Source of the DNA: Microvirga roseola
GTDB taxonomy: Bacteria; Pseudomonadota; Alphaproteobacteria; Rhizobiales; Beijerinckiaceae
DNA: 64,000 nt
Direction of reading: 5' to 3'
Assembly: GCF_020866965.1 (NCBI RefSeq)
Contig: NZ_JAJATX010000018.1
Coordinates: 1-64,000 of the forward strand
In this document: piece after piece, positions 368 through 55,952 of the stretch
How the letters are laid out: each line of letters starts with the position of its first letter
Position numbering within the stretch: position 1 is the stretch's first letter
Position numbers and translations under genes: made by a program
Notes under the pieces: generated by a model
Told to the model about the DNA's origin: nothing
The model's input: only the letters and a program-made list of their open reading frames with translations
Database searches by the model: none

Positions 368-1864
368 TCAGCGAGAACGCTTCTGGCGCGGAGAGCGGAG
401 GTTACGCGCCATATAGAAGCCGCTTGCAAATCCCACGGTCGCAGCCAGAAGCGCCTTGGGAGGGAGGGCGAGCGCAGCGCGCTTGACGGCGTGTTCCAGG
501 CGCGATTCCGGCTGATCCGGCCGCTCCGGGTCCGCGATGCGGAGGCCGACGACAGCCTCCTCAACCGGGTTGACAGACCGGACGGGAAGAGGACGGAGAG
601 ATCTGCCGTGGGATTTTACCAGGGCCTCGACGGCATTCACGAGCGAACCGCTGATGGTGATTGCCCCCCTCACGTCTTCGATTCCGACATCGAGATGCTC
701 GGCCAGCAGGTCGTTGCGCATGCGTTGAATGGCATCCCGTGTCGCACGGTCGGGCTCCGCGGCTTCGATAGCGAGGTCGCATTCGGAATCGAAGCCCATG
801 GAGCGGTTGTTGATGTTCGACGATCCGACCCGCATGAGCCGGTCGTCCACAATCAGAATTTTGGCATGGACGTAGATCGGCTGCCCCGCCTCGTTCACCG
901 GATAAAAGATCCGAAACCGGCCGTGCCGATCTGCGCGCAAGACCCGCTCGAGACATACGTCCCGGGCCACGCCCATTGTCTCCTGCTCGAGCCATCCCTC
1001 CGTAGAGCGTGGATTGACCACCACTATCTCGGGGCCGTTCGCTTCCTCGAGGCGATCGGCAAGCGCGTCACAGATGAGAGCGGATGCGAAATACTGGCTC
1101 TCCAGGTAGATGGACCGCGTCGCAGAGCGGATCGCCTCCAGGTACAGGCTTTCGACCTCCCGGATTTCAGGGCGGCCACCATAGGCCGGCATCGTTCGTG
1201 CGATGCCCACCTCCACATTGCGGAGTTGGGGCCTCAGCCCCTCAGGCCAGAGAGGCTCGACCCGCTCGACGGCGGGGAGTCGCTCGCCTGTCGCAAAGCG
1301 CCAGCGCTGACGCGCCAAGTCGCCCAGCGCTCGCGCGGCCGGCCCATCGACAGCTGCAGTGGCATCGTGCCATGGGCCATAGCGGGAGCTATCGGGCCTC
1401 CTACGGCAAGTGTCCTTGGGCAGATGCCCCCGCGTGTCCCACCGGTCCGTGGTCATGTCGATACCGCCGCAGAAGGCAAGCGCATCATCAATGACGACAA
1501 TTTTCTGGTGATGCGCCGAGGTCCAGGGGTGGGTGCTGTCAAAGCGCAGATGTGTCCTGCCGCGGGTCATGATGTCGAGCGCCATGAGCGGCAGCACCTG
1601 ACGGCTTAGAGTGTAGACGACGGCCATGTCCCATTTCAGGATGAAGATCTCGAGGTCCGGGCGCTGCCGGATGAGTTTCTTCATGAATTGTCCCAGCTGA
1701 CTGTCTTCCTTATCCGCATCGTCTGCAGGCGTGAGGTCGATCCGCAGGTCGAAGTCCCATCCGATCAGCAGGATGGAGCGGCGTGCCTTCAGCATGGCAT
1801 CCTTGGCATAGGAGAAGTAATCCGCAGCATCCACTATAAGGGCAAAGCGGTCCGCCCGCTCCAT
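368..1864 (-). CDS. Phospholipase D/cardiolipin synthase-like protein
   Basis: This 498-residue protein carries the two HxKxxxxD catalytic motifs of the phospholipase D superfamily: HHQKIVVIDD (His119, Lys121) and HAKILIVDD (His333, Lys335). Family members hydrolyse or transfer phosphatidyl groups through a phospho-histidine, so a role in phospholipid turnover or cardiolipin-type synthesis is likely; the exact reaction cannot be read. The C-terminus (about residues 465-490) is a hydrophobic, Gly/Ala-rich segment that could associate with the membrane. The N-terminus lacks the two transmembrane helices of typical Cls enzymes. I use the ATG at 1864; a longer frame to 1966 adds 34 residues without family resemblance. 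No operon partner is visible. Confidence 0.85.
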   Translation of the reverse strand: MERADRFALIVDAADYFSYAKDAMLKARRSILLIGWDFDLRIDLTPADDADKEDSQLGQFMKKLIRQRPDLEIFILKWDMAVVYTLSRQVLPLMALDIMTRGRTHLRFDSTHPWTSAHHQKIVVIDDALAFCGGIDMTTDRWDTRGHLPKDTCRRRPDSSRYGPWHDATAAVDGPAARALGDLARQRWRFATGERLPAVERVEPLWPEGLRPQLRNVEVGIARTMPAYGGRPEIREVESLYLEAIRSATRSIYLESQYFASALICDALADRLEEANGPEIVVVNPRSTEGWLEQETMGVARDVCLERVLRADRHGRFRIFYPVNEAGQPIYVHAKILIVDDRLMRVGSSNINNRSMGFDSECDLAIEAAEPDRATRDAIQRMRNDLLAEHLDVGIEDVRGAITISGSLVNAVEALVKSHGRSLRPLPVRSVNPVEEAVVGLRIADPERPDQPESRLEHAVKRAALALPPKALLAATVGFASGFYMARNLRSPRQKRSR

Positions 1865-3954: not shown

Positions 3955-5487
3955 GTGACGGAGGCGGCTCCCATTCTCGAGATGCGCGGCATTTCGAAAA
4001 CCTTTCCTGGCGTCAAGGCGCTCACGGACGTGGCGCTGACGGTCTATCCGGGCAAGATTCATGCGCTCATGGGCGAGAACGGTGCCGGCAAGTCCACCCT
4101 GATGAAGATTCTGTCCGGCGCCTATCAGGCGGATCCGGGCGGCGAGATCCGCATCAACGGCCGGCCCGTCCATATCGACGGGCCCCTCACGGCGCGGCAT
4201 CACGGCATCTCGATCATCTATCAGGAGCTTTCCCTTGCACCGAACCTGACGGTGGCTGAGAACGTGCTTCTCGGGCGCGAGCACAAGACCGGCCCGATGG
4301 TGGATCGCCGCTCGATGGCGGATGCCTGCCGCTCCGTCCTCGACAGGCTGGGCGTAGCCTTCACTCCCACGACGCTCGTCAGCGAATTGTCCATGGCCGA
4401 GCGGCAGCTTGTCGAGATCGCCCGAGCGCTCATCGCGAATTCCCGCATCCTCGTCATGGACGAGCCGACCACCTCCCTCTCCTCACGCGAGACGGAGGCG
4501 CTCTTCGCGCTCGTGCGCCAGCTTCGGTCCGAAGGGCTGGCCATCATCTACATCAGCCACCGCATGGCCGAGGTCTACGAATTGGCCGACCGGGTCTCGG
4601 TGCTCCGCGACGGCTCCTATGTCGGAACGCTCGTGCGGGACGAGATCTCCGCGGAGCGGCTGGTGCAGATGATGGTCGGGCGCGACCTGTCATCGTTCTA
4701 CAAGAAGGAGCACAACGCCCACGAGAGCCGCGGCCCCGTGATCCTCTCCGTCCGAAATATCGGCGATGGAAAGCGCGTGCATGACTGCTCCTTCGAGTTG
4801 CACGAAGGCGAAGTCCTCGGCATTGCGGGCCTCGTCGGCGCCGGCAGGACGGAGCTCGCCCGTCTCATCTATGGAGCCGACCGCCGCACCAGCGGCGAGA
4901 CCGTCCTCGATGGCAAGCCGCTTTCCATCAACCGCCCCGAGGACGCGATCCGCTCCGGCGTGGTCTACCTCACCGAGGACCGCAAGCATCTGGGTCTCTT
5001 CCTTGACCTGTCGGTGCGCGAGAACGTGAGCATCAGCGTGCTGGGACGCGATGCCCGCGCGGGTGGCGTCCTGAACCTGAAGGCCGCCAAGGAGCGCGCC
5101 GCCAGCGCCATCCAGGCGCTCGGGATCCGGGTTGCGGGCGATACCGTGCCCGTGGGCAGCCTTTCCGGCGGCAATCAGCAGAAGGTCCTGCTCTCGCGCC
5201 TGCTCGAGACCCAGCCGCGGGTCCTGATCCTCGACGAGCCGACCCGCGGCGTCGATATCGGCGCGAAATCGGAGATCTACCGCCTGATCGACGACCTCGC
5301 CCGCAATGGCGTCGGCGTCATCGTCATTTCGAGCGAGCTTCCTGAGGTCGTCGGCATCTGCGACCGGGTGCTCGTCATGCGCGAAGGGAGGATCGCGGGC
5401 GAAGTCGGCGGCGGGCCCGATCATCCGCCGATCACGCAGGAGAACATCGTAGCCATTGCGACAGGTGTGAGGAAGACAGCCGCATGA
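3955..5487 (+). CDS. Sugar ABC transporter ATP-binding protein (RbsA/XylG type)
   Basis: Two tandem ABC domains, as in ribose/xylose/galactose importers. The first has Walker [10 protein letters not shown], signature [15 protein letters not shown] and Walker [11 protein letters not shown]. The second has the degenerate [13 protein letters not shown], signature [15 protein letters not shown] and [12 protein letters not shown], the usual asymmetry of this family. It powers uptake with the following permease and binding protein at the inner membrane. I choose the GTG at 3955 because GGGAGA at 3942-3947 is 7 nt upstream; an in-frame GTG at 3940 lacks a site. The stop overlaps the permease start (ATGA), indicating translational coupling. 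The transported sugar cannot be read from the sequence. Confidence 0.9.
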
Positions 5488-47079: not shown

Positions 47080-48501
47080 TCAGCGGCCATAAACCTGGTT
47101 CGGCAGCCAGAAGGCTATCTCCGGGAAGATGTACAGCATCGCCATCGCCACGAACACCAAGGCCAGGAACGGCATGCATCCGCGGAAGATCTGGACGAGC
47201 TGAACATGCGGCGGCGCGATGCCTTTCAGGTAGTAGGCGGACATCGCCATGGGTGGAGTCAGGAACGAGGTCTGCAGGTTCAGGGCCACCAGGATTCCGA
47301 AGAACAGCGGATCGATGCCGAAATGCGGCAGCAGCGGCAGGAAGATCGGCACGAAGATGATGATGATTTCCGACCATTCCAGCGGCCAGCCGAGCAGGAA
47401 GATGATCAGCTGCGCGAGGATCAGGAAGGCCAGCGGCGACAGGTCGAGGCCGGTGACGAACTCCTTGATGATCTGCTCGCCGCCCAAATAGGAGAAGACG
47501 GAGGAGAAGGTCCAGGATCCGACGAAGAGCCAGCACACCATAGCTGCGGTGCGCACGGTAAGATAGACCGATTCCCGCAGGCGTTGCCATGTGAGCGCCC
47601 GGTAGATCGCCGCAAGCAGCAGACCGCCGAGAGCGCCCACCGCAGCGGCTTCCGACGGCGTCGCAAGCCCCAGCAGGATGGCGCCGAGGACCGACAGGAT
47701 AAGCAGAGCGAGCGGCAGGAACGACGTGAGCAGCATCACGATCAGACGTCCCGTCGAGATGTCGCCGATATCCTCTTCCTTCGGCTTAGGAGCGATCTTC
47801 GGCTGGAGCCAGGAACGGACGATCACATAGACCAGATAGAGGCCCGCCAGCAGCATGCCCGGGAATAATGCCCCGGCGTAGAGCTGGACGATGGAGACGC
47901 CCGAGGCCGCGGCATAGACGATCAGCATGATCGACGGCGGGATCAGGATGCCGAGCGTGCCACCGGCGCAGATGACACCGGAGGCGAAGCTCGTGTCGTA
48001 GCGGGCCTTGAGCATTGCGGGGAAGGCCAGAAGTCCCATGAGTGTGACGACGGCGCCGACGATGCCTGTCGCCGTGGCGAACAAAGCGCAGGTGACGAGA
48101 GCTGCAACCGCCATCGCTCCCGGCACACGGCGTGCGGCGATATAGAGCGTGTGGAACAGGCGATCGACGATGTTGGCGCGCTCGACGATGTAGCCCATGA
48201 ACAGGAAGAGCGGCACTGCGGTCAGCACGTCATTGGCCATGACCGAGTAGGTCTGGTTGACCAAGAGATCGAAGATCCGGTTGTTGAAGAAACCGCCGAC
48301 CCATTCCTGCATTTGCGTCCATGTATCGGCATCGTTTCGGACGGCCCTGTCATAGGCCCGCCACATCCGACCCGCGTCGAAGTAGGCATAGTATCCGAAC
48401 CCGACGCCCATCGCCATGAGCGTGAAGGCGATGGGGAAACCGAGCAGAATGATGAAGATGAATGTCCCGAGCATCAGCAGGGCGACTTGCGGATCGGTCA
48501 T
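47080..48501 (-). CDS. TRAP transporter large permease (DctM)
   Basis: A 473-residue membrane protein with about 12 helices and DctM motifs AGGTLGILIPPSIMLIVYA and ATPSEAAAVGALGGLLLA. It forms the Na+-driven transport unit with the small subunit 6 bp upstream. An extra hydrophilic insertion near residue 230 (PKPKEEDIGDIS) matches the longer DctM subgroup that serves keto-acid or mannitol-like substrates. Confidence 0.92.
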   Translation of the reverse strand: MTDPQVALLMLGTFIFIILLGFPIAFTLMAMGVGFGYYAYFDAGRMWRAYDRAVRNDADTWTQMQEWVGGFFNNRIFDLLVNQTYSVMANDVLTAVPLFLFMGYIVERANIVDRLFHTLYIAARRVPGAMAVAALVTCALFATATGIVGAVVTLMGLLAFPAMLKARYDTSFASGVICAGGTLGILIPPSIMLIVYAAASGVSIVQLYAGALFPGMLLAGLYLVYVIVRSWLQPKIAPKPKEEDIGDISTGRLIVMLLTSFLPLALLILSVLGAILLGLATPSEAAAVGALGGLLLAAIYRALTWQRLRESVYLTVRTAAMVCWLFVGSWTFSSVFSYLGGEQIIKEFVTGLDLSPLAFLILAQLIIFLLGWPLEWSEIIIIFVPIFLPLLPHFGIDPLFFGILVALNLQTSFLTPPMAMSAYYLKGIAPPHVQLVQIFRGCMPFLALVFVAMAMLYIFPEIAFWLPNQVYGR

Positions 48502-48507
48502 GGGCCG

Positions 48508-49137
48508 TCACCCTTTTCTGGAAGGATCGAGATTGGAAGGCACGTCGACCGCCTCCGGCCCGTGCCGGATGATTTCGGCCTCGCGCTCTTCCATCAGCTT
48601 CTTCTCGGTTTCTTCGACATCATCGGCAGCGCGAATCCACTCGCCCGTCCTGATACAGACGATGCAGCGGCAGACCTGTGCGATTCCCTGGATGAGAAGC
48701 AGCAGCCCGGCGGCGACAATGATGGACTTGAACTGGTAGATCGGAATACCGGCGGGCGAATTGACGCTCACCTCCTGGAAGCGCCAGGAGCGTGCTGCGT
48801 ATTTCCAGCCGGCCAGCACCAAGGCCAGCACGCCTGGGAAGAAGAAAAGGAAGTAGAGGACCAGCTCGACTTTGGCCTGCGTCTGCGGCCTCCAGAGCCG
48901 GTACAGGAAGTCACCTCGGACATGCCCGTTTCGTGAGAGCGTATAGGCGCCCGCCATCATAAACAGCGTTCCGTACATGATGTACGAAATGTCGAAGGCC
49001 CAGCTCGTCGGCCTGTTCATGACATAGCGGACGAAAACTTCGTAACCGGTGCCGAGCGTCATAATCATGATCGCCCAGGCGAAGGCCTTGCCGAACCATG
49101 CCGAAACGCGATCGGCAAACATGATATAGCGAACCAT
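48508..49137 (-). CDS. TRAP transporter small permease (DctQ)
   Basis: A 209-residue membrane protein with four helices and the DctQ-type segment MNRPTSWAFDISYIMYGTLF. A charged cytoplasmic tail of about 45 residues is longer than usual. It lies 86 bp downstream of the binding-protein gene and 6 bp upstream of the large permease. Confidence 0.9.
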   Translation of the reverse strand: MVRYIMFADRVSAWFGKAFAWAIMIMTLGTGYEVFVRYVMNRPTSWAFDISYIMYGTLFMMAGAYTLSRNGHVRGDFLYRLWRPQTQAKVELVLYFLFFFPGVLALVLAGWKYAARSWRFQEVSVNSPAGIPIYQFKSIIVAAGLLLLIQGIAQVCRCIVCIRTGEWIRAADDVEETEKKLMEEREAEIIRHGPEAVDVPSNLDPSRKG

Positions 49138-49223
49138 GGAGATCCCGCGCTGCTCTGGTCACAGGGCGACCCGGCGGTTCGTTATCCGCCGCCGGGCCGT
49201 ATGGATGGACGTATGGATCGTTC

Positions 49224-50354
49224 TCAGATCTTCAGCTTGCCCGGGAAGTAATGCTCATAGGCGAGAGCATAATCCGGGGCATTCATGATCTCGTAGAACA
49301 CCACCCGCTCCACGAACTGGCGCTGACTGTCCATGACGCGTTTCATGAACTCGTCCTGCTCCAGCGTCGGGATGAGTTTATCCCAGGCCTGGAGCTGGGC
49401 GTCGAGAACATCCTGCGGCGTGCGGATCACGTTGACGCCGCCTTCCTGCAGCTTGCGCAGATCCTGCGAGTACTGGTCGAGAGCCAGCGCATGGTTGGAG
49501 GTGCTCACCGCTTCGACGCCATGCTGCAGGATTGCCTGCAGATCCTCGTCAAGATCGTCGAAGAAGTCCTTGTTGAAGAGGAACTCGAACGACTCGCTCG
49601 CCTGATGGTAGGAGGACAGCATGTAGTTCTTGGCCACGTCCTGTGCGCCGAAACGCATGTCGGATGACGGATTGTTGAACTCGAAGGCGTCGATCACGCC
49701 GCGTTCCATGGCCGGCACGATTTCGCCGCCCGGCAGCTGGGCCACGCTCATGCCCATCTGCTGCATGAGGTCCGCAGCCAATCCGACGGTACGGTACTTC
49801 AGGCCCCGTACATCGTTGACCGAGGTCACCGGGTTCTTGAACCACCCGAAGGGCTGGGCCGGCATGGGGAAGCCATAGAACCCGTAGACGTTGAGGCCGA
49901 GGATGTCCTGGGTCAGCTCCTTGTAGAAATCCTGCCCACCGCCGGCATAGAACCAGGCCAGCATGGTCGCGGCGCTGCCGCCCCAGACCGGCCCCGTCCC
50001 GAAGAGGGAAGCCGCCTTGTGCTTACCGTACCAATAGACCGGCACGGTGTGGGCGGCGTCGATGACGCCGTCATGCACGGCATCGAGCACCTGGAAGGCG
50101 CCGACCACCGCGCCCGCCGGCAGGAGGTCTATCTTGAGCCGCCCGCCGGACATCTTCTCGACTCGCTCGACATATTGCCGGGCGAAATCCATCCAGATGT
50201 CCGAGGACGGCCACGAGGTCTGCATCTTGATGACGACGGGACTCTGCGCCTTTACGGCTGGAGCCGCCACGGTGCCGGCTGCCGCGCCGGCGACGAGGGC
50301 GCCGCGTTTCAGGAACCCGCGGCGGGTATCGGCAATGCTCTCAGTGGCTGACAT
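49224..50354 (-). CDS. TRAP transporter substrate-binding protein with Tat signal
   Basis: A 376-residue periplasmic binding protein of the DctP family. The N-terminus has the twin-arginine motif DTRRGFLKRGALVAGAAAG, so it is exported folded by the Tat system. The mature part includes MQTSWPSSDIWMDFARQYVE, GLKYRTVGLAADLMQQMG and EFNNPSSDMRFG, similar to the TakP-like branch that binds 2-oxo acids. GGGAGG precedes the ATG at 50354. It heads the TRAP-amidase operon. Confidence 0.92.
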   Translation of the reverse strand: MSATESIADTRRGFLKRGALVAGAAAGTVAAPAVKAQSPVVIKMQTSWPSSDIWMDFARQYVERVEKMSGGRLKIDLLPAGAVVGAFQVLDAVHDGVIDAAHTVPVYWYGKHKAASLFGTGPVWGGSAATMLAWFYAGGGQDFYKELTQDILGLNVYGFYGFPMPAQPFGWFKNPVTSVNDVRGLKYRTVGLAADLMQQMGMSVAQLPGGEIVPAMERGVIDAFEFNNPSSDMRFGAQDVAKNYMLSSYHQASESFEFLFNKDFFDDLDEDLQAILQHGVEAVSTSNHALALDQYSQDLRKLQEGGVNVIRTPQDVLDAQLQAWDKLIPTLEQDEFMKRVMDSQRQFVERVVFYEIMNAPDYALAYEHYFPGKLKI

Positions 50355-50894
50355 CGTTTCCTCCCTGTCTGGTTTTCTGAGTTCAGCCGCCTCCGCCTAC
50401 GGTCTTCTTCGGCCAGGGCGGCCCTAGCGGAGGCCAAGATGCCGTGAGACGAGGCCAGCCCTGGATGGCGTTATGCCGAAGATGTTCAGGAAAGCTGCCG
50501 CGCGAGATCATCGCGAGGTCCGCATCGGACGCGAAGTTACTCTTGCGGCGAAGCAAAAGGAGGGGCTCATCTTCGCAGCAGCGAGATGGAGCTACCGGAC
50601 TGCAGGCCAATGCGCGTCCTCCCAAACCTGTGGTGTTCCGCCGCTCAGCCTCAACGCCGAAGGCGCAATCACCCTGATATCCGCGGCCCGTGAAAGTTCG
50701 CCGTCGGACACAACGTACAGTCAAGTTATGATAGGCCGCACCAGCTTGGTTTCAAGACGCTATTATCGGCCAGCGAATAAAGCGGAAGAATTCACGATTG
50801 CGGCACCGCTTTGTTGCACCGCAATACAATGCGACAACCTTCCACTGTTTCAGTTCGTGCTTGGGAAAGTCAAAACTGGCGGATCATGCTCCCC
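50355..50894. other. Intergenic region, no gene recognised
   Basis: About 540 bp between the TRAP operon start and the stress-type cassette. A 159-residue + frame from 50473 has no domain, a poor start and unusual composition, so I do not call it. The region should hold the TRAP operon promoter. Confidence 0.4.
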
Positions 50895-50919
50895 GGAACC
50901 CCATCTTATCCCTCACGTT
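50895..50919 (+). promoter_or_regulatory. EcfG-type general stress promoter
   Basis: GGAAC and CGTT are separated by exactly 16 bp, the consensus of the alphaproteobacterial general-stress sigma factor EcfG. It lies 30 bp before the ATG of the first Cys-rich mini-protein, so that gene is probably induced by stress or in stationary phase. Confidence 0.75.
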
Positions 50920-50948
50920 GCCTCACACGTATCAGAAAGGAGACCACC

Positions 50949-51113
50949 ATGAGGTGCCGATTCTGCCAGCAGGACGTGGAGAATCCCTGCAGTAACGTGC
51001 AGGAGATGCAGCAGCGGGCTGCAAGCCACGTCTCCCGTTGCGAGACTGCCCTCATGAGGCAGTACGAGACCGGAACGGGCTCCGGCGACGCCGACATGCT
51101 CAGTCGCAGGTGA
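50949..51113 (+). CDS. Cys-rich mini-protein, copy 1
   Basis: A 54-residue protein starting MRCRFCQQDVENPCSNVQEM then QQRAASHVSRCE. Cysteines at 3, 6, 14 and near 30, with His near 27, suggest a small zinc-binding fold. AGGAGA is 5 nt before the ATG. It is a paralogue of the gene at 51541; the two share CxxCQQDVxxPCxNxQEMQQRA. Function unknown. Confidence 0.78.
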   Translation: MRCRFCQQDVENPCSNVQEMQQRAASHVSRCETALMRQYETGTGSGDADMLSRR

Positions 51114-51116
51114 GCC

Positions 51117-51311
51117 ATGGCCGAGGACCGCGCCAAGGGTTTGGCCGCGCAAAGCGTGAAGGCCAGCATCAGGCATCCCAACCAGAGCAGCCCCGACCAC
51201 CAGGAACAGGGCGACCTGACGCAGAGCAACCGGAGCCTGACCGGAAATGACGAGCCAGCGGACAAAAAGGATGCCGACAGCCCGTCGCAGGAAGACCGCT
51301 ACAAGCCATAG
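51117..51311 (+). CDS. Small hydrophilic protein of the stress cassette
   Basis: A 64-residue charged, probably disordered protein (MAEDRAKGLAAQSVKASIRH, then a Gln/Asp/Ser-rich tail ending EDRYKP). It starts 3 bp after the previous stop, so the two are co-translated. No known family is recognised; the composition resembles stress-induced hydrophilins. Confidence 0.65.
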   Translation: MAEDRAKGLAAQSVKASIRHPNQSSPDHQEQGDLTQSNRSLTGNDEPADKKDADSPSQEDRYKP

Positions 51312-51322
51312 GAGGTGAATCG

Positions 51323-51424
51323 ATGGCCAAGAAAGCCCGCATGAGACCGTCTTGGAAGAAGCACAAGCGCAACGAGGGCAGGCCCTCCGGATCGCGCAAG
51401 GCGCGCGTGACGCAGCGCAGCTAA
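51323..51424 (+). CDS. Very small basic protein
   Basis: A 33-residue frame (MAKKARMRPSWKKHKRNEGR followed by PSGSRKARVTQRS) behind a strong site GGAGGTGAA. About 40% of its residues are Lys or Arg, suggesting nucleic-acid contact. It lies 11 bp after the hydrophilic gene and before a terminator. It could be a tiny ribosome- or DNA-associated protein; not recognised. Confidence 0.6.
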   Translation: MAKKARMRPSWKKHKRNEGRPSGSRKARVTQRS

Positions 51425-51447
51425 GCTGCTGCAATTCCAATCATAAG

Positions 51448-51471
51448 CGGCCCGCTTCCGCGGGCCGTTTT
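51448..51471 (+). terminator. Rho-independent terminator within the stress cassette
   Basis: CGGCCCGC pairs with GCGGGCCG around TTCC and is followed by TTTT. It closes the first unit of the cassette. Confidence 0.85.
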
Positions 51472-51483
51472 GAATTGTTCTGA

Positions 51484-51508
51484 GGAACCGCGACTCCGCC
51501 TCCACGTT
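51484..51508 (+). promoter_or_regulatory. Second EcfG-type promoter
   Basis: GGAAC-N16-CGTT again, 32 bp before the second Cys-rich mini-protein. The match in both sequence and spacing to the first copy supports a duplicated stress-regulated unit. Confidence 0.75.
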
Positions 51509-51540
51509 GGCCTTCAAGCCCGAACCCAAAGGAGGCTAAT

Positions 51541-51717
51541 ATGATCTGCGCATTCTGCCAGCAGGACGTGAACGATCCCTGCCATAACATCCAGGAAATG
51601 CAGCAGCGCGCCGAGCACCATATCGATCGCTGCGAGCGCGCCTTCGAGAGACAAGGCGGCGGCAACCATCCTCAGCGTGCGCCCTCGACCGACATTCAGA
51701 GCGGCGGCAAGGCTTAA
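51541..51717 (+). CDS. Cys-rich mini-protein, copy 2
   Basis: A 58-residue protein, MICAFCQQDVNDPCHNIQEM then QQRAEHHIDRCERAF, with Cys at 3, 6, 14 and near 30 and two His residues near 27, the same ligand spacing as copy 1. Its tail differs (Gly/Gln/Pro-rich). AAAGGAGG lies 6 nt upstream of the ATG. Probably a zinc mini-protein; function unknown. Confidence 0.78.
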   Translation: MICAFCQQDVNDPCHNIQEMQQRAEHHIDRCERAFERQGGGNHPQRAPSTDIQSGGKA

Positions 51718-51729
51718 AGGAGACAAGAC

Positions 51730-51897
51730 ATGGCTCAGAACGCAGGCGCCAATAAGGGCGGCGTCAACAAAGCCCGCGACAAGAGCGCCGATAGCCATCG
51801 CAAGAGCGATGAACGCACCGGCCAGAACCAGACCGTGGTGAAGCCGATCGATCCCGGCACGCGCACGGATGGCGACGGACCGCCCCGTCAGCGCTGA
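51730..51897 (+). CDS. Small hydrophilic protein of the stress cassette, second unit
   Basis: A 55-residue disordered-looking protein (MAQNAGANKGGVNKARDKSA, many Lys, Asp, Gly and Gln). AAAGGAGA precedes the ATG, 12 bp after the Cys-rich gene. Its position matches the hydrophilic gene of the first unit. Not recognised. Confidence 0.65.
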   Translation: MAQNAGANKGGVNKARDKSADSHRKSDERTGQNQTVVKPIDPGTRTDGDGPPRQR

Positions 51898-51953
51898 CGG
51901 CGTTTGGCTCAACAACTCCGGCGAAAGCCGGCCCGACAGGGAGACATGGCCTC

Positions 51954-52115
51954 ATGGCCAACGAGATCAAGAAAGGCCCTGCGAGCAACAAGAACGCTCC
52001 GGGCGTCGGCAACCCGAGCGAGGGCGGAGGTGTCGGCAACCAGAAGACCGGCGGCATCGGCAACATGAACACCGGCGCCGACCGCAAGACCGACAAGCAG
52101 AGCAACAAGAGCTAG
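51954..52115 (+). CDS. Gly/Asn-rich mini-protein
   Basis: A 53-residue protein with loose repeats of G-V/I-G-N (GVGNPSEGGGVGNQKTGGIG, then NMNTGADRKTDK). AGGGAGA is the likely ribosome binding site. Very hydrophilic and without Cys or hydrophobic core. It is the last gene of the cassette. Confidence 0.6.
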   Translation: MANEIKKGPASNKNAPGVGNPSEGGGVGNQKTGGIGNMNTGADRKTDKQSNKS

Positions 52116-52160
52116 AGCAGCGCCCCGTTGAGGCTAAGGCTCCTGTCCGGTGACTCTCAA

Positions 52161-52186
52161 GAAAGCGGGCTGTACAGCCCGCTTTC
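52161..52186 (+). terminator. Inverted repeat ending the stress cassette
   Basis: GAAAGCGGGCTG is followed, after TA, by its perfect complement CAGCCCGCTTTC. In RNA this forms a long stem with an A-rich 5' side and a T-rich 3' side, consistent with a terminator usable from either direction. Confidence 0.7.
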
Positions 52187-52356
52187 TCCATGGCTGCTCG
52201 CTGGTCCACTCTCTCCTGTTCAGGAGAACGCATCAGAGCCGAATAGCCCAATGCTGCACTTGGAACATCGTAGGTAACCATTCGGGGGGCAGCCTCTCCC
52301 CGTGATAGTACGTTGCCCACCGGCACCTCCGGCACGACATTAGCATCCGAGCATAT

Positions 52357-52373
52357 TGCCGTACCTGCCGTAC
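52357..52373 (+). repeat. Short tandem repeat upstream of the NRPS gene
   Basis: TGCCGTAC occurs twice with 1 bp between copies, 9 bp apart start to start. It lies about 140 bp before the NRPS start and could be an operator half-site pair, by inference only. Confidence 0.3.
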
Positions 52374-52511
52374 TGACGGTCCTGTCAACGCCCCGCGGGT
52401 TACCGCATGGGAAGGAACCTGACAGGCCCGATTCATTGCGAAGTGGAGATGGTTTTGCGGCCCACTGGGCCCTCCTGTCGGCGGCACGGTCTTTGGAAAG
52501 GGAGTTCGACA

Positions 52512-55500
52512 TTGTTCGAAACGGACGTGACGTCAGATCGCCCGCCCGTTGACTGGGCTACCAAGCTTGATGGCGCCCCTTCCATCCTCGAACTGCCCAC
52601 CGACCGATCCCGTCCGACAAAGCTGACGGGGGAAGTGCTGTCGGTCTCACGTATCTTGAACAAGCAGCAAACCGACGATGCGCAGGCCTTCGCGAGATCA
52701 TGCGGAATCGCGCTGAATGCCGTGCTGCTGGCGCTGTGGCAGGCACTCCTCTGCCGGCATACGGATCAACGCGATCTGGTCATGGGCTGCGCCGTTCTCG
52801 ACCCGGCTGGGAACGACAGTCCCGGTTGGGCCATTCTTCGCTCTCCCGCCGACAGCAGCAGATCATTGCGTCAGATGGTGGCGAATGCTTCGCGAGAACT
52901 AGTTGAGGGAGAGCTTGCCCGGATCATGATGCCTGATCTCGTTGCGGCCCTCGGGATCGAGCCCGGCAACAGCAAGCATCCTGTCTTCCAGGTCGCGCTC
53001 GCAGAGTGCCGTCAGCCCCTGAACGAGGTTGCGCCACTCACGGACGGCCGTTTCGCTCCCTGCGACCTCACGCTTCTCTGGCACGAATCCGAGGCCGGCA
53101 TTGCCCTGCGCCTGGACTATGCGCCCCAGCTCTTCGAACCCCGGCGGGTGGAGCGCCTCCTTGCCCGCTTCGAAGTGTTGCTCAGCGGAGCCCTTGCTGA
53201 CCCGGATGCGCCTGTCGATGAGCTCACTCTGCTCACGGAGGACGAGCAGGACAGCCTTCGCAACTGGAATGCCACCGCGAGGCCGAGAGAAGACCGGCGC
53301 ACTATCGCAGAGATGTTTGCCGAACAAGTCGCCCGTACCCCGGAGGCGGTCGCCGTCGAGTTTCAGAAAGAGACGCTCACTTATCGCGAGCTTGACGCGA
53401 AAGCGAACCGGCTCGCGCAGGAACTGGTCCGCCGCGGTATCGGATCTGATGTAACGGTCGGCGTCAGCATCGAGCGCTCCATCGGCATGGTCGTGGCGGT
53501 TCTCGCCGTTCTCAAGGCCGGCGGCGCCTATGTGGCGATCGATCCGGCCTATCCGGCGGCGCGGCGCGACTATATGGTCGCGCAATCAGGCGCGCGCCTT
53601 TTGCTGACCGACAGAGAAGGCTCCGAGGACGGCACCATCGAACGCTTGATGATCGACGAAGCGCTTGCTGGTGCAACCGATGCTCCGCTGGCGGCTCCCG
53701 ACAGCGCGGCGACGGGGGACAATCTCGGTTACGTGATCTTCACTTCCGGCTCGACCGGCCAGCCGAAAGCTGTCGCGCTGCCGCAGCGGGCGCTCACAAA
53801 CCTGATCGAGTGGCAGCTCGCACGCCCCGATTTCACGCCCGGCGCCCGCACCCTGCAATTCGCCTCGCTCAGCTTCGACGTATCCTTCCAGGAGATCTTT
53901 TCCACCTGGTGCTCCGGCAGCTCGCTCGTGCTGATCCCGGATACGGTGAGGCGCGATCCGCGCGGCCTGCTCGACTACATCCGCACCCATGCGGTCAATC
54001 GCATCTTCCTGCCCTTCGTGGCGCTGCGCGGTCTTGCCGATGCGGCCGTGGCCACGGGGCAGTCTCCCGAGACCTTACGCGAGGTCTATACGGCGGGCGA
54101 GCAGCTCGTGGTCGACGATACGATCCGCAGCTTTTTCTCAAGCCTGTCCGACTGCCTGCTCGAGAACCAGTACGGTCCATCGGAGAGCCACGTGGTCACC
54201 GCCTATCGCCTGACCGGTGCGCCGCAGACCTGGCCGACGCTGCCGCCCGTCGGCGCGCCAATTGCGAATTCCACGGTCCACGTGCTGGATGCCAAAGGAT
54301 ATCCGCGCCCCATCGGCGTGCCGGGAGAGCTCTATCTCGGCGGAACCTGCCTTGCCCGCGAGTATCTGGGGCGGCTGGATCTGACCGCCGAGCGTTTCGT
54401 CGAGCGGCCCCATGCAGCGCCGGGCGAGCGGCTCTACAAGACGGGCGATCTGGCGCGCTGGCTTGAGGACGGCACGCTCGAATTCCTCGGCCGCATCGAC
54501 CATCAGGTCAAGTTTCGCGGCTACCGCATCGAACTCGGCGAAGTCTCCTCGGTGCTCTCGGGCTTTCCGGGCGTCAAGCAATGCGTGGCGTCGATCGTGC
54601 GTCTCGACGGGGTCGGCCCGCGGCTTGCCGCCTATGCCGTTCCCCGCGACGGCGCAATCCTCTCGCTGCAGGATCTGCACCGCTTCGCCAGGAGCAGCCT
54701 GCCGGACTACATGGTCCCCTCGCATTACCTCGTGCTCGACTCCCTGCCGCTCACGCCCAGCGGCAAGATCGACACCGCGCGTCTTCCCGCTCCCGCCTTC
54801 GACCGCGGTATTCTCTCCACGGCCTATGAAGAGCCTGCCGGCGAGGCTGAACGGCGGCTTGCTTCCATCTGGCAGGAACTTCTCGGCATCTCGGAGATCG
54901 GGCGTCACGACGATTTCTTCGACCTCGGCGGCGACTCCATGATGGCGGTGGAGATGTTCCTGTTGATCGCCGAGCAGTTCGGGCAGGAACTGCCCCTTGG
55001 AGCGCTGGCGCAGTTTCCAACCATCGCAGGATTGGCAGGCCTGCTGGAAAACCACATGCAAGAGAACAACTGGCAGGTTCTGGTGCCGCTGAAAACAGGC
55101 GGCGAGAGGACGCCCCTGTTCTGCGTCCATGGCGGCTCCGGCAACATCGCGAGCTTCCCGAAGCTCGCACGCGCCATGCCGCCCGATCAGCCGGTCTACG
55201 GCCTGCAGTGGGACGGCCTTGAAGGCCGCGGCGGAGCCCGCACCATCGAAGCGATGGCAAAGCGCTACCTGCAGGACATCCGCACCGTGCAGCCGCACGG
55301 ACCCTATCTGCTGGCGGGCCAGTGCATCGGCGGCATCGTGGCCCGCGAGATCGCGCACAAGCTTGTGGATGCGGGCGAGGAAGTCGCGCTGCTGGTAATG
55401 TATGAGTCGCCGAACATGTGCTCTCGCGAGTTCCGGCTGCTGGAGCCCCTGCCCGCCTTTCCGTCGCTTCTCTCTCCCCTGCTGCTGCGTTCGGCGGGAG

Positions 55501-55952
55501 CGACGATCATGGGCCTTAAGGTGCTGCTGGGAAAATACAAGCGGGAGCAGATTCTCAGGATCAGGTCGCGAGACCTCAGCGGACGACAGGTCGCCCAGGA
55601 GGACCGTAACCTTCATGGCAGCCTCGTGATGGTGCGGGCGATGTGGAAGTACACGATCAGGCTCCTGCCGGTGCGCACGCTTTACTTCCATAATGGCAGC
55701 GAAAACGGCCGCCCCATGGCGCTCGCCGGCCGCTGGCGCGACGGCATGAAGGGATGGTCGGGCCACGTATCAAAGGATTTCGAGGTGCACAAGGTGGATG
55801 CCGAGCACAACGACATCCCCTTCGCCCCGGCGGCCCTTGCGCTCCTTGCAGAAGAGCTGGAGCAGATCCACCGGTCGCGATCCGGCCAGCGCCCTGCGGA
55901 CGAGGATGACGCATCGGCCATTCTGAACGAGCCGCTGGCGCAGGCCATGTAG
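52512..55952 (+). CDS. Single-module NRPS: partial condensation-A-PCP-TE
   Basis: About 1146 residues if started at TTG 52512 (GGGAG 8 nt upstream); the frame opens at 52407. Order: C-terminal lobe of a condensation domain (about 20-255, beginning with the SILELPTDRSRP region and lacking the HHxxxDG lobe); adenylation domain (about 260-755, with VIFTSGSTGQPKAV, LENQYGPSESHVV and PLTPSGKID); carrier domain with LGGDS (Ser809); thioesterase (about 850-1120) with GQCIGG in place of GxSxG (Cys938). The pocket residues, aligned by hand to GrsA, read D-V-Q-F-Y-A-Q-V-V-K, near the proline code. No MbtH, phosphopantetheinyl transferase or second NRPS is adjacent. Confidence 0.85.
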   Translation: MFETDVTSDRPPVDWATKLDGAPSILELPTDRSRPTKLTGEVLSVSRILNKQQTDDAQAFARSCGIALNAVLLALWQALLCRHTDQRDLVMGCAVLDPAGNDSPGWAILRSPADSSRSLRQMVANASRELVEGELARIMMPDLVAALGIEPGNSKHPVFQVALAECRQPLNEVAPLTDGRFAPCDLTLLWHESEAGIALRLDYAPQLFEPRRVERLLARFEVLLSGALADPDAPVDELTLLTEDEQDSLRNWNATARPREDRRTIAEMFAEQVARTPEAVAVEFQKETLTYRELDAKANRLAQELVRRGIGSDVTVGVSIERSIGMVVAVLAVLKAGGAYVAIDPAYPAARRDYMVAQSGARLLLTDREGSEDGTIERLMIDEALAGATDAPLAAPDSAATGDNLGYVIFTSGSTGQPKAVALPQRALTNLIEWQLARPDFTPGARTLQFASLSFDVSFQEIFSTWCSGSSLVLIPDTVRRDPRGLLDYIRTHAVNRIFLPFVALRGLADAAVATGQSPETLREVYTAGEQLVVDDTIRSFFSSLSDCLLENQYGPSESHVVTAYRLTGAPQTWPTLPPVGAPIANSTVHVLDAKGYPRPIGVPGELYLGGTCLAREYLGRLDLTAERFVERPHAAPGERLYKTGDLARWLEDGTLEFLGRIDHQVKFRGYRIELGEVSSVLSGFPGVKQCVASIVRLDGVGPRLAAYAVPRDGAILSLQDLHRFARSSLPDYMVPSHYLVLDSLPLTPSGKIDTARLPAPAFDRGILSTAYEEPAGEAERRLASIWQELLGISEIGRHDDFFDLGGDSMMAVEMFLLIAEQFGQELPLGALAQFPTIAGLAGLLENHMQENNWQVLVPLKTGGERTPLFCVHGGSGNIASFPKLARAMPPDQPVYGLQWDGLEGRGGARTIEAMAKRYLQDIRTVQPHGPYLLAGQCIGGIVAREIAHKLVDAGEEVALLVMYESPNMCSREFRLLEPLPAFPSLLSPLLLRSAGATIMGLKVLLGKYKREQILRIRSRDLSGRQVAQEDRNLHGSLVMVRAMWKYTIRLLPVRTLYFHNGSENGRPMALAGRWRDGMKGWSGHVSKDFEVHKVDAEHNDIPFAPAALALLAEELEQIHRSRSGQRPADEDDASAILNEPLAQAM

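What the first reader, a model, noticed from the sequence alone, without database searches (positions are those of the whole stretch)
50895..52115. Duplicated EcfG-controlled units of Cys-rich mini-proteins
Two units share a layout: GGAAC-N16-CGTT, then ~30 bp, then a CxxCQQDVxxPCxNxQEMQQRA mini-protein, then a hydrophilic mini-protein. The Cys/His spacing suggests a zinc fold of about 40 residues. Six genes of 33-64 codons in 1.2 kb, most below common annotation cut-offs, may form a stress-response system with no described function.
Basis: partly seen in the sequence, partly recalled or inferred. Interest (0 to 1): 0.7.

Follow-up and report, generated by a model that had tools for sequence, protein, structure and literature searches.

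The report
Stress-promoter mini-protein operons of Microvirga
Two side-by-side operons of very small proteins, including a predicted tiny zinc-binding protein, sit behind general-stress-type promoters, and their first gene recurs in most Microvirga genomes examined, so they are probably real stress-response genes whose job is still unknown.

Summary
Two GGAAC-N16-CGTT sites (50895-50919, 51484-51508) lie 29 and 32 bp before two related Cys-rich genes, A1 and A2. Six ORFs of 33-64 codons form two putative operons, A1-B1-C1 and A2-B2-D, each followed by a strong hairpin. All six families show codon-level purifying selection (D from three sequences only). A was found only in Microvirga: 41 of 48 genus genomes, 1-6 copies, with no credible hit in wider samples. 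Of 67 distinct A genes in fetched loci, 60 have an EcfG-type site at the same distance, against 2 of 298 long ORFs there. The genome carries phyR-nepR-ecfG. Corrections: only promoter plus A is shared by the two units, and the family is not alphaproteobacteria-wide. New: modules are shuffled. Away from A, B2 has its own EcfG-type site in 5 of 6 loci checked and a C gene downstream in 7 of 7 places. Function is inferred: a zinc mini-domain with a hydrophilic tail, encoded beside hydrophilic proteins and a polycation, most likely stress protection (Ruc-like, hydrophilin-like). EcfG dependence, zinc binding and function are untested.

The parts
50895..50919 (+). EcfG-type promoter of unit 1, GGAAC-N16-CGTT
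   Evidence: conserved position in relatives; consensus in PMC7083833 (passages)
50949..51113 (+). A1: 54-aa Cys-rich mini-protein (C3, C6, C14, H27, C31)
   Evidence: pN/pS 0.26 in its subfamily, 30 sequences
51117..51311 (+). B1: 64-aa hydrophilic acidic protein
   Evidence: pN/pS 0.45, 27 sequences
51323..51424 (+). C1: 33-aa polycationic protein (pI 12), RPSWKK family
   Evidence: pN/pS 0.31, 20 sequences
51440..51482 (+). terminator-like hairpin after unit 1 (GC stem 51448-51467 followed by TTTT)
   Evidence: -23.2 kcal/mol, z -5.15; the consensus scan listed this stem on the - strand only
51484..51508 (+). EcfG-type promoter of unit 2, GGAAC-N16-CGTT
51507..51540 (+). leader of A2 with inverted repeat TTGGCCTTC / GGAGGCTAA whose 3' arm covers the Shine-Dalgarno
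   Evidence: covariation not significant; z only -0.85
51541..51717 (+). A2: 58-aa Cys-rich mini-protein
   Evidence: (up to 95% identity, M. splendida); pN/pS 0.24, 8 sequences
51730..51897 (+). B2: 55-aa hydrophilic basic protein, 13% Gly
   Evidence: 10 of 48 genus genomes; pN/pS 0.33, 9 sequences
51954..52115 (+). D: 53-aa hydrophilic protein, 21% Gly
   Evidence: 3 of 48 genus genomes; pN/pS 0.28, 3 sequences
52155..52195 (+). hairpin after unit 2, terminator-like (T-rich end lies inside the stem)
   Evidence: -21.2 kcal/mol, z -4.67; not listed by the consensus scan

Best explanation
Two adjacent effector operons of the alphaproteobacterial general stress response. When stress activates PhyR, it takes NepR off EcfG; EcfG-RNA polymerase then transcribes A1-B1-C1 from 50895 and A2-B2-D from 51484, each up to its own hairpin (promoter motifs, genes and hairpins are shown by sequence and, for promoters and genes, by conservation; co-transcription and the regulatory step are inferred, the latter from the known PhyR-NepR-EcfG switch). 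A is a one-zinc mini-domain (CxxC, C14, then a helix carrying H27 and C31) with a short hydrophilic tail (inferred). B1, B2 and D are hydrophilic, probably disordered, proteins; C is a 33-34-residue polycation. The most likely role is protection of the stressed cytoplasm: A as a redox/zinc-switched holdase resembling Ruc in design, B and D acting like hydrophilins, C neutralising or binding nucleic acid or ribosomes. Genomes mix the parts (A-B1-C, A-B2-D, B2-C), as expected of separate effectors serving one response. Breakdown: coding genes 0.97; EcfG-controlled 0.9; A binds zinc 0.75; protective role about 0.4.
For: Motif at fixed distance: 33 of 34 A genes first collected; of 67 distinct A genes in named loci, 57 with a strict pattern and 60 with the published -10 variants, control 2 of 298. 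Third own copy keeps it. B2 away from A has GGAAC-N16/17-GGTT in 5 of 6 loci checked (L147, L148, L149, L152; L151). phyR, nepR and ecfG together on contig C17, second nepR-ecfG pair on C55 (EcfG named from context and PhyR-like sigma domains). pN/pS 0.21-0.45 in every family tested. Ligand set kept in 60 of 67, H15 in only 49. Model: helix 17-38, mean pLDDT 87-91 for residues 1-30, about 50 in the tail. Hydropathy and pI. Ruc: zinc N-domain with four Cys plus variable hydrophilic disordered tail (PMC7448276, sections 8 and 9 read).
Against: No expression, metal or phenotype data. Loose motif not enriched genome-wide. 7 of 67 A genes lack the motif in the relaxed N16-17 form (one of them, L085, has an N15 site), so some copies are decayed or otherwise driven. 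One B2 locus (L150) lacks a GGTT/CGTT/TGTT box, and in L151 the expected B2 start codon is not ATG. No fold match (one hit, E 9.1); mean pLDDT 75, pTM 0.46. A lacks the second CxxC of a zinc ribbon. B1 is only 5% Gly. No link to chaperone genes was seen, unlike ruc; in 24 of 60 loci a TRAP transporter is near. Three of 22 C1 genes following B1 look truncated or frame-shifted (L056, L063, L076). Nothing links A, B and C physically.
Confidence: 0.45

Rival explanations
1. A is a small nucleic-acid- or RNA-polymerase-binding zinc finger that tunes transcription or translation under stress, and C is a nucleic-acid or ribosome-binding polycation working with it.
For: 38 of 63 A members match Pfam Phage_zn_bind_8, a putative DNA-binding zinc domain, at E up to 1, the best at 1.2e-4 and 22.2 bits, over the stretch holding the Cys/His. 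C1 is 42% charged, pI 12, and linked to A or B2 in several arrangements.
Against: The best of these matches is below the family cut-off of 24 bits. A1 and A2 are near neutral (pI 6.5 and 6.0). No related solved structure found by sequence or fold.
Confidence: 0.27
2. A is a zinc or thiol buffer (metallothionein-like or redox sink) induced by stress, with no specific partner.
For: Four conserved Cys and one His in about 40 residues; 2-6 copies in many genomes.
Against: Non-ligand positions are as conserved as the Cys: P13 and R23 invariant, F5, Q8, V10, A24, R30, A34 and L35 in at least 90% of 63 rows, which a mere metal buffer would not need.
Confidence: 0.12
3. The GGAAC-N16-CGTT sites serve another ECF sigma factor or are vestigial, so the operons are not part of the general stress response.
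For: ECF -35 boxes are alike (recalled); the genome motif count is not above the reversed control with loose spacing; several A copies have lost the motif.
Against: The motif equals the published EcfG consensus (PMC7083833 and PMC4814048, passages), with the same spacing and -10 variants; N16 spacing stands out.
Confidence: 0.08
4. The six ORFs are chance ORFs in GC-rich DNA, or antisense ORFs (such as 50913-51440 and 51514-51915) are the real genes.
For: The antisense ORFs are longer (175 and 133 aa) and stay open across many relatives (for example in 26 of 30 A genes of the 54-aa type). For C1 and D the antisense register that shares third codon positions is open in 17 of 20 and 2 of 3, so codon position alone does not exclude it there.
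Against: Differences fall on sense third positions (0.45-0.63), which are not the third positions of those two antisense ORFs (they fall on sense position 1, or 2 for C1). The antisense register that does share third positions is closed in nearly all relatives of A1, A2, B1 and B2 (open in 1 of 30, 0 of 8, 1 of 27, 1 of 9). Starts, Shine-Dalgarno and gene order are conserved.
Confidence: 0.02
5. A selfish or toxin-antitoxin-like small-gene cassette spread by mobile elements.
For: Multi-copy, also on plasmids of four Microvirga records.
Against: A TRAP transporter flanks A in 24 of 60 loci; no match in phage records for A1 or in viral contigs for the family; purifying selection; stress-type promoter.
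Confidence: 0.04

Closest known systems
EcfG (PhyR-NepR-EcfG) regulon genes of unknown function
   Same: Same promoter consensus, spacing and -10 variants; regulator genes present. In S. meliloti 150 of 202 genes induced by rpoE2 overexpression lack a predicted function (PMC3616915, passages).
   Different: The window's six proteins match no Pfam or NCBIfam model over its cut-off; A and C were found only in Microvirga in the samples searched; B1, B2 and D were searched only within Microvirga loci or genomes.
Ruc (Rv0991c family), redox-regulated zinc chaperone
   Same: Small, N-terminal zinc domain with four Cys, variable hydrophilic disordered tail (PMC7448276, abstract and sections 8, 9).
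   Different: A has one CxxC plus separate C14, H27, C31; no zinc-ribbon match to E 1; no chaperone neighbours seen; genus-restricted against Ruc's wide bacterial spread.
Pfam PF24623 Phage_zn_bind_8
   Same: Weak profile similarity over about residues 3-34 in 38 of 63 members.
   Different: Best 22.2 bits, below the cut-off of 24; no phage relative found.
Haloarchaeal one-domain zinc-finger micro-proteins
   Same: Under 70 aa; deletion phenotypes in stress adaptation, biofilm and swarming (PMC6562870, title and abstract).
   Different: Those are picked by two C(P)XCG motifs (PMC11241148, start of abstract in a listing); A has a single CxxC and a His/Cys helix.
Hydrophilins (definition recalled)
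   Same: B2 and D are Gly-rich and strongly hydrophilic.
   Different: B1 is 5% Gly; no sequence relation to any named hydrophilin was tested.

Membership tests
EcfG regulon | GGAAC-N16/17-CGTT type promoter upstream | tested here: met
EcfG regulon | phyR, nepR and ecfG encoded in the genome | tested here: met
EcfG regulon | Transcription lost in an ecfG mutant | not testable with these tools
   needs a mutant and RNA
Ruc / zinc-ribbon chaperones | Zinc-ribbon sequence match | tested here: not met
   no zinc-ribbon model among the Pfam families listed to E 1
Ruc / zinc-ribbon chaperones | Oxidation-activated holdase that releases zinc | not testable with these tools
   needs purified protein
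PF24623 Phage_zn_bind_8 | Score over the curated cut-off of 24 bits | tested here: not met
   best 22.2 bits
C(P)XCG zinc micro-proteins | Two C(P)XCG motifs | tested here: not met
   sequences printed: a single CxxC, no CPxCG
Hydrophilins | Gly over 6% and hydrophilicity index over 1 (recalled) | tested here: inconclusive
   Gly 13% (B2), 21% (D), 5% (B1); GRAVY -1.26 to -1.61; the published index was not computed
Zinc protein | Conserved ligand set | tested here: met
   C3, C6, C14, H27, C31 all present in 60 of 67
Zinc protein | Bound metal | not testable with these tools
   needs purified protein

The most novel reading that the evidence does not exclude
Microvirga carries a shuffled kit of EcfG-driven mini-proteins (zinc mini-domain A, disordered B1/B2/D, polycation C) recombined into operons A-B1-C, A-B2-D and B2-C. 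Together they could make a stress-induced protective assembly, for instance a polycation/disordered-protein coacervate gated by the redox state of A's zinc site, with a leader inverted repeat over the ribosome-binding site as a second control layer.
Probability: 0.15. Interest if true: 0.75.

Novelty: new variant of a known kind. Interest (0 to 1): 0.5.

Why it matters
Much of the general-stress regulon of alphaproteobacteria is made of genes without known function (in S. meliloti 150 of 202 rpoE2-induced genes; PMC3616915, passage). Here is a compact, conserved, multi-copy set of candidate effectors with promoter, boundaries and family membership defined well enough for deletion and biochemistry. 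If A proves to be a redox-switched zinc protein, it would be a lineage-specific parallel to Ruc tied to EcfG.

Tried and rejected
Pfam and NCBIfam scans of all six proteins: no match over a curated cut-off (the best sub-threshold NCBIfam hit is ribosomal protein L44e, E 0.0091, for A2). PHROGs, which has no cut-off: weak hits only, best E 0.0011 (phrog_16376, 4 of 63 A members) and 0.0012 (phrog_8924, 56 of 63), both of unknown function. Solved-structure profile search: best E 0.42. Foldseek PDB: one hit at E 9.1, treated as none. Phage records: none for A1; viral contigs: 67 pattern stretches, none confirmed. A C relative in plasmid records: none. Rfam over 50300-52450: one hit far below its cut-off (rsmX, 21.4 bits against 56), rejected.

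Order-wide profile hit in G982 (20.8 bits): no Met in the frame before the match and no EcfG motif; taken as chance. The C hit in G284 (first 14 positions inside a 315-aa frame) is likewise taken as chance.

Leader hairpin: complementarity of the segment after the -10 box with the Shine-Dalgarno region is high (mean 16.1, shuffled arm 10.8). Swapping partners among the 60 sequences still gives 15.2 (1 of 1000 swaps reaches the observed) or 15.6 within size groups (9 of 1000), and relatedness can cause that excess. On 56 of the 57 leaders listed, 81.1% of cells pair (shuffled 79.8; 15 of 500 as high; slid registers 28-50%), but pairs with a change on both sides are not in excess (2, shuffled mean 2.1). 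A PMC3616915 passage gives start sites 5-12 nt from the promoter end (the promoter class is not clear from the passage), so the 5' arm may not be transcribed. Left unexplained.

EcfG control of the 45-aa C relative: no motif upstream in 9 of 9, so not claimed for that form.

Limits. The GTDB scan used two peptide patterns and would miss distant relatives. In the wide genome searches at most 16-26 first-look candidates were scored per genome. The 298 control ORFs use first-ATG starts and include antisense ORFs, so they are a loose control. Rows dropped: one duplicate (L087); masked rows (L098, L104), exact repeats and L085 (37 aa) from A4; one search tested only three A subtypes, so members outside them were not tested, and by a slip in my filter its 58-aa set held the masked 44-aa-type row L104 (ratio 0.30 with it, 0.24 without). 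L151 was missed by the pattern and read; the seventh B2 place (G627:C77:103121) was not fetched, so its promoter is unchecked.

Papers: Microvirga + EcfG, 0 papers; Microvirga + general stress response, 6 papers, 5 listed, one looked at by passages and not about this; Microvirga + small proteins, 4, listing only. Searches (0 papers), 88, 89 and 97: no description of these families in the listings and abstract beginnings seen. Most subscription papers are not held.

Full report
What is there. The region 50895-52195 holds two short putative operons on the + strand. Unit 1: GGAAC-N16-CGTT (50895-50919), A1 (54 aa), B1 (64 aa), C1 (33 aa), then a hairpin of -23.2 kcal/mol (z -5.15) followed by TTTT. 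Unit 2: GGAAC-N16-CGTT (51484-51508), A2 (58 aa), B2 (55 aa), D (53 aa), then a hairpin of -21.2 kcal/mol (z -4.67) (the consensus scan did not list either as a + strand terminator). A1 and A2 are 57% identical. B1 and B2 show no similarity, nor do B2 and D. So what is duplicated is promoter plus A, not the unit.

Are the genes real? Pairwise pN/pS in the sense frames: A 54-aa type 0.26 (30 sequences), A 44-aa type 0.21 (14), B1 0.45 (27), C1 0.31 (20); A 58-aa type 0.24 (8, correcting); B2 0.33 (9), D 0.28 (3). Differences fall mostly on third codon positions (0.57-0.63, B1 0.45). The two long antisense ORFs would put their third positions on sense position 1, or 2 for C1. The antisense register that shares third positions is closed in nearly all relatives of A1, A2, B1 and B2, but open in 17 of 20 for C1 and 2 of 3 for D, so for those two the case rests on the ratio, start sites and gene order. 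Counts are over related sequences, not independent events.

Where are they? All 60 loci found in the GTDB species collection are titled Microvirga. A profile finds A in 41 of 48 genomes of the genus, 1-6 copies; in 17 of 298 genomes of the family sample, all of this genus; in 1 of 289 of the class sample, the own genome; in 2 of 397 of the order sample, the own genome plus a 20.8-bit hit that looks like chance. Family C is in 36 of 48 and, in the family sample, in 12 genomes of the genus plus one chance-looking hit, of 298. B2 is in 10 of 48, D in 3 of 48. Four plasmid records carry A, all Microvirga. In one of them (M. terrae, 462 features) neighbours are annotated and A is not; a second record opened has one listed feature in all and tells nothing.

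Promoters. Of 34 A genes first collected, 33 have the motif upstream. Of 68 A genes in the 60 named loci, 67 distinct, 57 have GGAAC-N15-17-[CT]GTT 29-38 bp before ATG, 52 of them N16. With GGAA[CT]-N16-17-[CTG]GTT, 60 of 67 do, against 2 of 298 long ORFs of the same loci. Some misses are altered sites at the same place. Genome-wide, GGAAC-N15-17-CGTT is not in excess of its reversed control (126 vs 140), but N16 makes up 62 of the 100 listed hits. The motif is the EcfG consensus: GGAAC-N16-CGTT, with TGTT, CATT and GGTT also used (PMC7083833, passages), and GAAC-N16,17-C/GGTT in Methylobacterium (PMC4814048, passages). The genome has phyR, nepR and an ecfG-like gene together on contig C17 and a second nepR-ecfG pair on C55; four NepR matches in all pass the cut-off.

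Shuffled modules. B1 follows A in 26 of 60 loci, and a C1-like stretch follows in 22 of these 26, three of which look truncated or frame-shifted. The tandem A arrangement of the window recurs in five other loci (L047-L050, L052), so the duplication is probably older than these species, though the tree resolves few forks. M. vignae (L081) has A-B2-D like unit 2. Of 11 B2 places, 7 lie away from any A found; in 7 of 7 a C gene follows 63-185 bp downstream. In 5 of the 6 of these loci that were read, GGAAC-N16/17-GGTT stands upstream, 34-36 bp from ATG in L147, L148, L149 and L152; in L151 it is present but the expected start codon is not ATG; L150 lacks it. In 8 of 9 cases the 45-aa C relative lies tail to tail with an A gene of the short subtype; it has no EcfG motif in 9 of 9.

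What the proteins look like. In 60 of 67 A genes C3, C6, C14, H27 and C31 are all present, while position 15 is H in 49, so H15 is unlikely to be a ligand (window A1 has S there). The model of A2 from 63 sequences gives residues 1-30 with mean pLDDT 87-91, a helix 17-38 and a loose tail; overall pLDDT 75, pTM 0.46. No fold match. 38 of 63 members resemble Pfam Phage_zn_bind_8 weakly, the best 22.2 bits under a cut-off of 24. B1, B2 and D are very hydrophilic; D is 21% Gly; C1 has pI 12.

How it most likely works. Shown by sequence: genes, hairpins, conserved promoter, conserved Cys/His set. Inferred from established biology: PhyR frees EcfG from NepR under stress, and EcfG transcribes both units. 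Inferred with less certainty: A binds one zinc and, with its hydrophilic tail and four Cys, works like Ruc, which loses zinc on oxidation and then prevents aggregation of unfolded proteins (PMC7448276, outline with abstract and headings, sections 8 and 9 read); B and D act as hydrophilin-like protectants; C is a polycation for nucleic acid or ribosomes. The main rival is a nucleic-acid-binding regulator. A is not a member of the Ruc-type zinc ribbon or Phage_zn_bind_8 families by the tests made here.

Verdict. The finding is a modular set of EcfG-type mini-protein operons, spread through one genus. Function remains to be tested.

Noticed in passing
window 51507-51540; leaders of A genes in L047-L104: Right after the -10 box most A genes carry TTGGCC(TCC) complementary to the Shine-Dalgarno region (GGAGGCCA). 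Strongly conserved, but covariation is not shown; it is degenerate in the window's A1. A similar TTGGCT follows the -10 of the unrelated B2-C operons.
   Followed up: partly
window 47080-50354 (-): A dctPQM TRAP transporter lies beside the A units; DctM relatives are within about 4 kb of A in 24 of 60 loci, in two orientations, with DctP identities to the window's of about 54% or 42-44%. Repeated linkage or old synteny is undecided.
   Followed up: partly
G000 contigs C17, C57, C55, C149: Four NepR-like genes over the Pfam cut-off in one genome, at least two with an adjacent ecfG-like gene.
   Followed up: partly
L092, L095, L096, L102 near 4132-4269 (-); L105 4129-4266 (-); L082 4891-5028 (-): A 45-aa RPS[WF]KK protein lies tail to tail with, and overlaps by a few bases, the short A subtype; no EcfG motif upstream.
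   Followed up: partly
L148, L149, L151, downstream of C: A further 69-aa His/Gly-rich hydrophilic ORF (MTTRNHNNRSEKQKGH... or close) follows the B2-C genes.
   Followed up: no
L151 near 1498-1504 (+): The B2 frame is open and conserved but the codon expected to be ATG is not, although the EcfG-type site is kept: start lost, another start, or a sequencing error.
   Followed up: no
window 52407-55952 (+): A single-module NRPS (condensation, adenylation, carrier, thioesterase) starts about 290 bp after unit 2.
   Followed up: no
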